Shown piece after piece: positions 7,894 to 14,070 of a stretch of DNA of 20,645 nucleotides. The position numbers and the translations under genes were made by a program. Numbering within the stretch: position 1 is the stretch's first letter; each line of letters opens with the position of its first letter. The DNA is taken from positions 1-20,645 of IMG/VR virus record IMGVR_UViG_3300024328_000072, one strand, 5' to 3'. The notes under the pieces were generated by a model. That model was not told where the DNA came from. It saw only the letters and a list, made by a program, of their open reading frames with translations, and did no database searches. The stretch is from a virus.

Positions 7894-7978
7894 AACCCTT
7901 CAACCCTTACCCGCCTTTGCCTTGTGCATCGTGCGGGTTTTGGGGTAGGCGAATGAATCGCCGAACTAAACTAAACCA
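7894..7978 (+). ncRNA. Two-hairpin intercistronic RNA element, copy A
   Basis: After two AACCCTT blocks comes stem 1, ACCCGC (7909-7914) with GCGGGT (7933-7938). Then TTTGGGGTA leads to stem 2, GGCGA (7948-7952), loop ATGAA, TCGCC (7958-7962), and the trailer GAACTAAACTAAACCA. ACCC upstream of stem 1 can also pair with GGGT after it, making a nested or pseudoknotted core. Copies B (8193-8277) and C (9052-9111) keep the architecture with different stem 1 sequences. Confidence 0.6.
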
Positions 7979-8192: not shown

Positions 8193-8277
8193 AACCCTTC
8201 AACCCTTGTGGCCGCCTTCTCAATTGAGTCGCGCGGCCTTTGGGGTAGGCGAATGAATCGCCGAACTAAACTAAACC
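8193..8277 (+). ncRNA. Two-hairpin intercistronic RNA element, copy B
   Basis: Same plan as copy A. AACCCTT occurs twice. Stem 1 is GGCCGC (8210-8215) with GCGGCC (8233-8238), different in sequence from copy A but still fully paired. Then come TTTGGGGTA, stem 2 GGCGA/TCGCC (8248-8262) and the identical trailer. The core lies exactly 300 nt after that of copy A. Compensatory change in stem 1 against a constant core is the signature of selected RNA structure. Confidence 0.62.
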
Positions 8278-8296
8278 ATAAACAAAGGAAAACAAA

Positions 8297-12480: not shown

Positions 12481-12867
12481 ATGAAAAAACTAAGTGAAAC
12501 ATATAAAGAACTAGAGATTGCATTTAGCTTTCCTATCAGGATTAAAGATGCCAATGGTAACTTGACTTACTTCGAGAACAGTGATGGCTTCTGGTGTAGG
12601 TATGAGCGTGATGCCGGCGGTTACGTGACTTACTTCGAGAACAGTGATGGCTTCTGGTGTAGGTATGAGCGTGATGCCGGCGGTTACGTGACTTACTTAG
12701 AGGACAGTAATGGCTTCTGGTGTAAGTATGAGTATGATGCCAAAGGTAACGAGACTTACTACGAGAACAGTGATGGCAAAAAGCAAGGAACTCCACGCTC
12801 AGCCAAGACCTGTGACGGTAAAGTCGTAGTAGTCGATGGAACTAAATACAAACTTCAAGCATTATGA
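12481..12867 (+). CDS. Tandem-repeat protein of the FENSDGFW type
   Basis: A 128-residue protein consisting mostly of 21-residue repeats (TYFENSDGFWCRYERDAGGY then V). Units 1 and 2 are identical at the DNA level, unit 3 is diverged and unit 4 is partial. The alternating Tyr/Phe/Trp, Gly-Asn and acidic residues resemble the YD/RHS-like beta-hairpin repeats seen in many phage and prophage proteins of unknown function. N-terminus: a short helical leader. C-terminus: a distinct small domain (GKVVVVDGTKYKLQAL). No signal peptide is seen, so it is probably cytosolic. The stop overlaps the next ATG by 4 nt. Unit number may vary between relatives. Confidence 0.75.
   Translation: MKKLSETYKELEIAFSFPIRIKDANGNLTYFENSDGFWCRYERDAGGYVTYFENSDGFWCRYERDAGGYVTYLEDSNGFWCKYEYDAKGNETYYENSDGKKQGTPRSAKTCDGKVVVVDGTKYKLQAL
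12564..12752 (+). repeat. 63-bp tandem repeat within coding sequence
   Basis: Unit 1 (12564-12626) and unit 2 (12627-12689) are exact copies, unit 3 (12690-12752) is diverged, and a partial unit follows. The length is a multiple of three, so the frame is kept. The exact match points to a recent duplication. Confidence 0.85.
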
Positions 12868-13019
12868 AAACAATACCAACAAAAGTAAGCATCCAGTCCG
12901 CTAATCCTGACTGGAACCCAATTTTCAATAGCATTCAAGTTGGCCCCAATGACGAGGCCGCTGGATCTTTTCTGACCATCTACGGAAATGATACGCAAAA
13001 CAACAAAGATTTTACTTGA
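12864..13019 (+). CDS. Small protein coupled to repeat protein
   Basis: A 51-residue polar protein (KTIPTKVSIQSANPDWNPIF, then NDEAAGSFLTIYGNDTQNN). It is not recognised. The ATG overlaps the previous stop (ATGA), which is the main argument that it is real. It ends inside the TTGACC of the next promoter. No cysteines or membrane segment. Confidence 0.5.
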   Translation: MKTIPTKVSIQSANPDWNPIFNSIQVGPNDEAAGSFLTIYGNDTQNNKDFT

Positions 13020-13042
13020 CCATACATAAATAACCCTATGGA
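13016..13042 (+). promoter_or_regulatory. Possible promoter ahead of tRNA-like gene
   Basis: TTGACC (13016-13021), a short 15-nt spacer and TATGGA (13037-13042). A second TTGACC follows at 13043 without a good -10. The upstream part repeats that of the promoter at 12409. A start near 13049 would give a transcript beginning about 24 nt before the tRNA-like gene. Confidence 0.4.
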
Positions 13043-13072
13043 TTGACCATAGTTCTTTCAAATTTTCATTGT

Positions 13073-13191
13073 GCCCCATTAGTTTAACGGGTAAAACACC
13101 AGCGCAAATCGATATAAGCCGACTAGTAGGCCACTAGTTGGGATCGATGAGCTTAATGTTGGAGATGCGGGTTCAAATCCCGTATGGGACT
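13073..13191 (+). tRNA. tRNA-like gene with 54-nt hairpin in place of anticodon loop
   Basis: The body is a normal tRNA: acceptor GCCCCAT (13073-13079) with ATGGGAC (13184-13190, one C-A mismatch), TA at 8-9, D stem GTTT/AAAC (13082-13097, loop with GGG), anticodon stem CCAGC (13099-13103) with GTTGG (13158-13162), a four-base variable loop AGAT, and T arm GCGGG-TTCAAAT-CCCGT (13167-13183). CCA is not encoded. Between the anticodon stem strands lie 54 nt instead of 7. They fold into a long hairpin: ATCGAT/ATCGAT (13108-13113, 13143-13148) and CCGACTAGT/ACTAGTTGG (13119-13141) with loop AGGCC. No anticodon can be read. This could be a tRNA mimic, a degenerate tRNA, or a precursor needing removal of about 47 nt. 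Confidence 0.65.
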
Positions 13192-13192
13192 G

Positions 13193-13267
13193 CTCTTTCT
13201 GTAGATGCGAAAGCATTGAACAACGAGGCGACAGAACGCGCCTACAACCTTCGGGAGAGAGAAAGAG
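13193..13267 (+). ncRNA. Compact cloverleaf-like RNA next to the tRNA-like gene
   Basis: CTCTTTCT (13193-13200) pairs with AGAAAGAG (13260-13267) over eight bases. Inside are three hairpins: ATGC-GAAA-GCAT (13205-13216, GNRA loop), AGGCG/CGCCT (13226-13243) and CC-TTCG-GG (13248-13255, UUCG loop). It starts two bases after the tRNA-like gene and ends about 40 nt before the exonuclease ATG. It lacks a T-loop, so it is not itself a tRNA. It could be a 3' stabilising or processing element, or a separate small RNA. Confidence 0.45.
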
Positions 13268-13308
13268 GTAAGCACAATAATGAAACTAACTAATCCTAAA
13301 ACAAAACT

Positions 13309-14070
13309 ATGAACTTAAAAACAAATACCAAAACCGCCCTCATTGATCTTGAACTTATCTCTTACTCCCATGCGGCTAAGGCTGAGTCAACCGGCACGGG
13401 TCTCAAAAGCCTTGTCGAGATGGTAGAGTTTACCATACAAAGTGTGGTCTCTGCTTGCCGCGCACAGAAGCATTACCTGGTGGTGTCGGGACGCAACAAC
13501 TTCCGCAAGGTTTTATATCCAGACTACAAAGCCGGGAGACGTGAGAAGCCACCTCTCTATGCCCCATTGATGGACAAGCTCAAGGAGTTGAATGCTTCTC
13601 GCTGGTGCAAGCACGACCAACTGGAGGCGGATGATCTGCTTGGTATCATGCTCACCAACGGACGGGTTGAAAACCCAATCCTTTGCAGCATAGATAAAGA
13701 TTTACTTGGTGTTCCCGGATGGCACTACAACTGGAACAAGGACGACTGGCCTCGTGAGGTTACGAAGGGTGAGGCAGACCACCATTGGTTGGTTCAGTTG
13801 CTCATGGGAGATTCAACCGACAACATTGAGGGGATGAAGGGTATTGGTATTGCTAAGGCTGAGAAGTTGGTTGCCGCCTACTATGAGAAGACGGGGGTCA
13901 TGGACGCACCCGTTGCATCAGCAAAAGAAATTTACGAATCCGAAGGTTTTAGTCTTGACGCATATACGAAGTGCCTCATGCTCGCCTCTATCTGGAGGTC
14001 ACCAATGCCACCAGAGCTTTTAGAAAACGAACTTATCTCGGAGGTGGTGAAGACCATTCCGAGCCTATAA
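13309..14070 (+). CDS. 5'-3' exonuclease (FEN/T7 gp6-like)
   Basis: A 253-residue metal-dependent flap/5' exonuclease, expected to remove RNA primers and recombine or degrade DNA during phage replication. Motifs in order: FRKVLYPDYKAGRREKP (about 65-82), the acidic metal site QLEADDLLGI (about 105-114), CSIDKDLLGVPG (about 126-137), and LLMGDSTDNIEGMKGIGIAKA (about 163-183), a helix-hairpin-helix with two Asp. The length is normal for phage members. It heads the replication operon. The leader is A-rich (AAAACAAAACT) without a Shine-Dalgarno sequence. Confidence 0.9.
   Translation: MNLKTNTKTALIDLELISYSHAAKAESTGTGLKSLVEMVEFTIQSVVSACRAQKHYLVVSGRNNFRKVLYPDYKAGRREKPPLYAPLMDKLKELNASRWCKHDQLEADDLLGIMLTNGRVENPILCSIDKDLLGVPGWHYNWNKDDWPREVTKGEADHHWLVQLLMGDSTDNIEGMKGIGIAKAEKLVAAYYEKTGVMDAPVASAKEIYESEGFSLDAYTKCLMLASIWRSPMPPELLENELISEVVKTIPSL

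What the first reader, a model, noticed from the sequence alone, without database searches (positions are those of the whole stretch)
13073..13191. tRNA-like gene with a long hairpin where the anticodon loop should be
Acceptor, D, anticodon-stem and T arms are all intact with canonical spacing, but 54 nt replace the 7-nt anticodon loop and fold into nested perfect helices (ATCGAT/ATCGAT, then CCGACTAGT/ACTAGTTGG). Bacteria have no tRNA-splicing endonuclease and 47 nt is too small for a group I intron. So either this is a non-decoding tRNA mimic (a decoy for host anticodon nucleases or maturation enzymes, or a processing signal) or an unknown removal reaction exists.
Basis: partly seen in the sequence, partly recalled or inferred. 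Interest (0 to 1): 0.75.

Follow-up and report, generated by a model that had tools for sequence, protein, structure and literature searches.

The report
Phage tRNA with hairpin replacing anticodon
A marine phage carries an intact-bodied tRNA gene whose anticodon loop is replaced by a long hairpin, on a small cassette that moves between phages; comparing it with others exposed a recurring, well-defined RNA insert in many other phage tRNA genes, including cultured phages, that could be tested at the bench.

Summary
Window 13073-13191 (+) scores 45.3 bits as a tRNA. All arms are intact, but 54 nt replace the 7-nt anticodon loop and fold into nested helices (z -3.8).

The gene sits on a 289-bp block (12997-13285) that is identical in a phage whose other genes are only about 85% identical (L087), and absent from a closer relative (L007). 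In a third phage (L113) the 230 nt outside the insert are identical, but the inner anticodon arm (13102-13160) is completely different. No excision of the insert restores a decodable loop: position 33 is always C (p = 0.13). I favour a non-decoding tRNA-like RNA with a hypervariable anticodon arm; an intron-bearing precursor and a young pseudogene remain possible.

Following the lead, many phage tRNAs carry 25-65 nt inserts whose removal restores a perfect anticodon arm. The largest set ('class A') has a covarying 7-bp hairpin followed by ACAGCAA, and occurs in cultured phages (GAP32, BF, CBB, SNUABM_12). Unexplained introns in Lak-phage tRNAs were reported in 2019 (PMC6784885); I found no published description of these motifs. 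The window's insert is not class A.

The parts
12997..13285 (+). 289-bp cassette shared without a single difference with phage L087, whose backbone is about 85% identical
13073..13191 (+). tRNA-like gene, 119 nt, no encoded CCA
   Evidence: RF00005 45.3 bits
13073..13079 (+). acceptor stem 5' strand GCCCCAT (3' strand ATGGGAC 13184-13190, discriminator T 13191); C2-A71 mismatch
   Evidence: and sequence
13082..13097 (+). D arm GTTT-AACGGGTA-AAAC
13099..13103 (+). anticodon stem 5' strand CCAGC (3' strand GTTGG 13158-13162)
13104..13157 (+). 54-nt insert in place of the 7-nt anticodon loop: GC/GC (13104-5/13151-2), ATCGAT/ATCGAT (13108-13/13143-8), CCGACTAGT/ACTAGTTGG (13119-27/13133-41), then 5-nt bulge TTAAT (13153-13157)
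   Evidence: z -3.76
13102..13160 (+). segment that is completely different in phage L113 although 105 nt to the left and 125 nt to the right are identical
13167..13183 (+). T arm GCGGG-TTCAAAT-CCCGT
13195..13276 (+). predicted branched RNA directly 3' of the tRNA-like gene, identical in L087 and L113; fold only weakly better than shuffles (z -1.5)
13036..13052 (+). hairpin CTATGG-ATTGA-CCATAG followed by a T-rich stretch, in the cassette 5' of the tRNA-like gene (terminator-like, function unknown)

Best explanation
It is a tRNA-derived RNA gene of a marine tailed phage that most likely no longer decodes. The acceptor, D and T arms form a normal tRNA body that host RNase P and 3'-end enzymes should recognise; the inner anticodon arm is a hypervariable hairpin. 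It travels on a 289-bp cassette (leader, tRNA-like gene, branched RNA) inserted in a variable spot before the early exonuclease gene. Shown: the intact body, the hairpin, the cassette's identity in a diverged phage, the exchange of the insert, and the absence of any excision that gives a canonical loop. Inferred: that it is transcribed, that the body is the working part (as a processing unit or a decoy for tRNA-binding enzymes), and that the insert is neither removed nor important in sequence.
For: The body is intact, with all positions for tRNA tertiary contacts. The hairpin is non-random. No contiguous excision restores U33; best score 3.7, p = 0.129, against p <= 0.01 for 43 of 60 class A-C tRNAs. 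Excision to a 7-nt loop would give anticodon UUA, which reads UAA, the stop of 16 of 25 genes examined. L113 keeps 230 of 230 nt around the insert but has another anticodon arm, so no anticodon is conserved. A comparable pair, L117 and L031, have the same acceptor and D arm, long anticodon-arm hairpins differing in sequence and no U33.
Against: There is no expression data. The L113 insert folds weakly (-5.2 kcal/mol), so the hairpin is not conserved as such. The cassette is too recently shared to show purifying selection on the tRNA body. No sigma-70-like promoter was found in 12860-13320. A C33 loop is rare but not impossible.
Confidence: 0.45

Rival explanations
1. Intron-bearing tRNA precursor: the 47-nt hairpin between loop positions 33 and 34 is cut out by the reaction that presumably removes the inserts of other phage tRNAs, leaving loop GC-UUA-AU.
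For: Many phage tRNAs carry 25-65 nt inserts in the anticodon arm whose removal gives a perfect arm: 30/46 class A, 7/8 class B, 6/6 class C at p <= 0.01. Introns in Lak-phage tRNAs are published (PMC6784885). In the window, removing the hairpin leaves 2+5 = 7 loop nt; L104 has a similar layout (stem, 2 bp, 2x2 internal loop, 6-bp helix) and would become tRNA-Lys(UUU). Exons constant while the insert varies is intron-like.
Against: C33, G32 and U38 remain when the hairpin is excised; p = 0.129. The UUA anticodon would suppress the phage's main stop codon. The class A model does not match the window. No intronless homolog in viral or genome contigs.
Confidence: 0.28
2. Young pseudogene: a tRNA captured on the cassette and broken by palindromic insertion and template-switch rearrangement in the anticodon arm, with no function.
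For: No decodable anticodon; C2-A71 mismatch; the insert is rearranged between copies, which share little more than ACTAGTTG; L113 also has an A29-A41 mismatch in the anticodon stem; only six loci known.
Against: Arms and tertiary positions are otherwise perfect, and all changes are confined to the anticodon arm: 0 of 230 nt differ outside it. The cassette itself has spread.
Confidence: 0.22

Closest known systems
Introns in Lak megaphage tRNAs (Devoto et al. 2019, PMC6784885)
   Same: Phage tRNA gene with an unexplained insert, missed by bacterial tRNA settings; inserts come and go between related phages.
   Different: The Lak inserts leave classifiable tRNAs; the window's does not. Lak sequences were not compared here.
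Class A inserts of phage tRNAs defined here (7-bp hairpin plus ACAGCAA)
   Same: Compact structured insert in the anticodon arm of a phage tRNA.
   Different: The window has no ACAGCAA motif, its insert lies in the loop rather than at 28|29, and it is not matched by model R1.
Phage tRNAs with altered anticodon loops that evade host anticodon nucleases (PMC10264068)
   Same: The anticodon loop is the variable part of a phage tRNA.
   Different: Those are reported as anticodon-loop mutations (title and abstract); here the loop is replaced altogether.
Group I introns in bacterial tRNA genes
   Same: Insert in the anticodon arm of a tRNA in bacteria or phages.
   Different: At 47-54 nt it is far too small; no group I family matches in Rfam.

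Membership tests
tRNA (RF00005) | Cloverleaf score above the family cut-off | tested here: met
   45.3 bits against 29
Decoding tRNA | 7-nt anticodon loop with U33 and purine 37, directly or after one excision | tested here: not met
   Best excision score 3.7, C33 in all; p = 0.129
Group I intron | Conserved catalytic core of about 200 nt or more | tested here: not met
   Insert 54 nt; no Rfam match up to E 10 besides tRNA and chance-level hits
Archaeal/eukaryotic protein-spliced tRNA intron | Bulge-helix-bulge (3 nt, 4 bp, 3 nt) at the exon-intron borders | tested here: not met
   The fold shows a 5-nt bulge, 2 bp, a 2x2 internal loop, then 6 bp (by inspection)
Phage tRNA insert class A (this work) | 7-bp hairpin followed by ACAGCAA; removal restores the anticodon arm | tested here: not met
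   Model R1 has no match in the window or L113 at E <= 1
Lak-type phage tRNA introns | Insert in a phage tRNA; relatives with and without it align as intact tRNAs | tested here: inconclusive
   Insert in a phage tRNA: yes. No intronless homolog found
tRNA pseudogene | Neutral decay spread over all arms in relatives | tested here: inconclusive
   Changes confined to the anticodon arm, but the flanks are identical too
Anticodon-nuclease decoy | Binds, resists or titrates a host tRNA nuclease | not testable with these tools
   Needs a bench assay

The most novel reading that the evidence does not exclude
Phages of bacteria use several compact (about 25-65 nt) tRNA inserts that are removed by a reaction not yet described, self-catalysed or by a host enzyme. 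Class A (covarying hairpin plus ACAGCAA) is the best-defined kind, and the window's hairpin is a divergent member of the general phenomenon.
Probability: 0.3. Interest if true: 0.88.

Novelty: new variant of a known kind. Interest (0 to 1): 0.6.

Why it matters
Bacteria are not known to splice tRNAs with proteins, and inserts of 25-65 nt are too small for known self-splicing introns. If the recurring inserts found here are removed, a new RNA-processing reaction exists in cultured phages (GAP32, BF, CBB). If they are not, phages make tRNA-like RNAs that cannot decode, plausibly to handle host tRNA nucleases or RNA processing. Either way the 2019 puzzle of introns in Lak-phage tRNAs gains a defined motif and cultured test cases. 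The window adds a natural experiment: identical tRNA bodies with exchanged anticodon arms on a moving cassette.

Tried and rejected
Class A membership of the window: rejected, no match to the covariance model.

Bulge-helix-bulge and group I intron: rejected by structure, size and Rfam.

Rejected: C33 remains, and a long variable arm is foreign to tRNA-Val.

A phage-encoded ligase as a universal partner of the inserts: not supported. RtcB is in 4 of 28 and T4-type RNA ligase 1 in 10 of 28 insert-bearing or control phage records, though all five Mimasvirus/Eneladusvirus-type records have the ligase.

A homing endonuclease as the cassette's mover: the window and L113 have T5orf172/GIY-YIG-type genes near the cassette, but L087 has a DNA methyltransferase there instead, so it is not a constant partner.

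Finding an intronless homolog to name the amino acid: none.

Known RNA family for the 3' branched RNA: none.

Class D (GGURAAGGACC) as introns: 0 of 7 regenerate an anticodon arm.

Full report
OBSERVATION. Rfam's tRNA model covers window 13073-13191 (+) end to end with 45.3 bits, placing 54 nt where 7 anticodon-loop positions belong; an E-value search of the neighbourhood adds only chance-level families. Default ARAGORN sees nothing. The body keeps what a tRNA needs: a 7-bp acceptor with one C2-A71 mismatch, G18G19, A14, the A15/U48 pair and a TTCAAAT T loop (sequence). The insert alone folds at -18.5 kcal/mol, z -3.76, 0 of 200 shuffles as good.

WHERE IT SITS. The window is a 20.6-kb virus record of a tailed phage with terminase, DnaB-type helicase and a 5'-3' exonuclease. 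That it is marine is my reading of the metagenome accession numbers, not a tool result. Its terminase is 55% identical to that of Phage C75C1, the nearest annotated record, which has no annotated tRNA. The gene lies between a small variable gene region and the exonuclease gene.

A MOVING CASSETTE. Near-identical contigs carry the same gene (L002, L018, L021, L119). L087 has genes about 85% identical to the window's near this spot, but 12997-13285 is identical over all 289 bp. L113, also about 85% identical, keeps 12997-13101 and 13161-13285 with 0 of 230 differences, while 13102-13160 is replaced by a shorter sequence with little similarity. L007, 94% identical in the exonuclease gene, lacks the cassette. 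What lies between cassette and exonuclease differs by phage: a T5orf172-type gene in L113, a DNA methyltransferase in L087. The simplest reading is that the cassette spread recently into one variable site, and that the inner anticodon arm is the only part of it that has turned over. Because the whole cassette is young, its identity does not prove selection on the tRNA arms.

DOES REMOVAL MAKE A tRNA? I scored every contiguous excision that leaves a 5-bp stem and 7-nt loop (U33, A/G37, pyrimidine 32) against 1000 dinucleotide shuffles. The window reaches 3.7 (p = 0.129), because position 33 is C in every product; L113 reaches 5.0 (p = 0.056) with a mismatched stem. The window's most natural product, GC-UUA-AU, would read UAA, the stop codon of 16 of 25 genes examined. 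No intronless tRNA with the same D and T arms exists in the viral or genome contigs. I therefore lean to a non-decoding tRNA-like RNA.

THE LEAD IT OPENED. A scan for tRNA D and T arms separated by 50-80 nt hit its 120-locus limit in viral contigs. Some hits are tandem tRNAs, but many are single genes with perfect acceptor, D and T arms and a structured insert. For these, excision restores a canonical anticodon arm far more often than chance: 30 of 46 in class A, 7 of 8 in class B (motif GUUACUU), 6 of 6 in class C (UUCCUAU), 0 of 7 in class D (GGURAAGGACC) at p <= 0.01. Restored anticodons include Lys UUU, Asn GUU, Asp GUC, Ile UAU and others. The classes were sorted by eye from motifs, so their borders are provisional, and classes B and C rest on few examples.

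CLASS A. Among 70 distinct D-arm/motif/T-arm genes, 48 have a perfect 7-bp hairpin ending 0-3 nt before the motif, against a shuffle mean of 1.6 and maximum of 6. In 33 aligned cores every one of the 7 pairs shows changes on both sides, and the covariation score is 0.98 against 0.33 in shuffles and at most 0.27 when slid. These 33 were picked for having at least 6 of 7 pairs, which inflates the percentage paired; one search is the fairer test. The loop is usually GACA, GUCA or GUUU. The usual insertion point is between tRNA positions 28 and 29. Rfam searched on ten loci, most of them class A, listed no other family over the insert at gathering scores.

CULTURED EXAMPLES. Cronobacter phage GAP32, Xanthomonas XbC2, Erwinia Kaldavass and pEa_SNUABM_12/_50, Serratia BF and Pectobacterium CBB carry class A-type tRNA genes of 119-127 nt, most of them tRNA-Lys, variously annotated as tRNA-Lys, tRNA-Ser, tRNA-OTHER or, in GAP32, overlaid by a protein call. 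The pairing of the first stem bases differs consistently across the insert (GG..CC in GAP32, CG..CG in SNUABM_12). In genome contigs the pattern hit 34 records, mostly Lachnospiraceae metagenome bins; whether these are phages binned with bacteria was not tested. RtcB or T4-type RNA ligase is not a constant companion. The window is not class A.

WINDOW-LIKE CASES. L117 and L031 share acceptor, D arm and anticodon-stem start, lack U33 in every excision, and carry long hairpins of different sequence that still pair. They are the closest analogue of a tRNA body with a non-decoding hairpin.

PRIOR KNOWLEDGE. Introns in Lak-phage tRNAs were described as enigmatic in 2019 (PMC6784885) and noted again in 2021 (PMC8346664); three other papers on phages and their tRNAs checked for the word intron do not use it. 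Nine literature searches found no account of the motifs above, but the library lacks most subscription journals and nearly all preprints.

VERDICT. The feature is real and unusual. For the window: non-decoding tRNA-like RNA 0.45, intron-bearing precursor 0.28, young pseudogene 0.22. The more valuable result is the class A family and the cultured phages in which removal can be tested directly.

Noticed in passing
L145-L150, L186 (GAP32, XbC2, Kaldavass, CBB, SNUABM_12, SNUABM_50): tRNA genes with class A-type inserts in cultured jumbo phages, mostly tRNA-Lys(UUU); GAP32 has two insert-bearing and one ordinary tRNA-Lys(UUU), and one insert-bearing gene is overlaid by the protein call GAP32_431A.
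   Followed up: partly
L151-L184: Class A inserts in contigs binned as Lachnospiraceae and other bacteria, several per contig in L159, L173 and L184; probably phages, not verified.
   Followed up: partly
L117, L031, L045, L050, L123 (class B); L024, L052, L124, L126 (class C): Two further recurring insert types in phage tRNAs, with motifs GUUACUU and UUCCUAU shortly before the anticodon arm.
   Followed up: partly
L023, L028, L038, L041, L044, L111, L127: Class D: tRNA-like genes with GGURAAGGACC (GGUUAAGGGCC in L028) in place of the anticodon arm; no excision gives an anticodon arm, and the same acceptor stems recur in different phages.
   Followed up: partly
window 12481-12867 (+): 128-aa ORF made largely of near-identical 21-residue repeats (YFENSDGFWCRYERDAGGYVT), encoded by a 63-bp tandem repeat.
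   Followed up: no
window 7894-7978 and 8193-8278: Direct repeat of about 86 bp, 84% identical, before the early genes.
   Followed up: no
L028 2375-2772; L044 2558-2969; L034 8742-9115: RNase P RNA gene and tmRNA genes on phage contigs with many tRNAs.
   Followed up: no
L074 207 (+): Insert-bearing tRNA whose excision gives UUA or CUA, that is, a possible stop-codon suppressor with an intron.
   Followed up: no
L007 3695-4000 and L113 7000-7300 (minus strand): Conserved intergenic stretch upstream of the cassette site, possibly another structured RNA.
   Followed up: no
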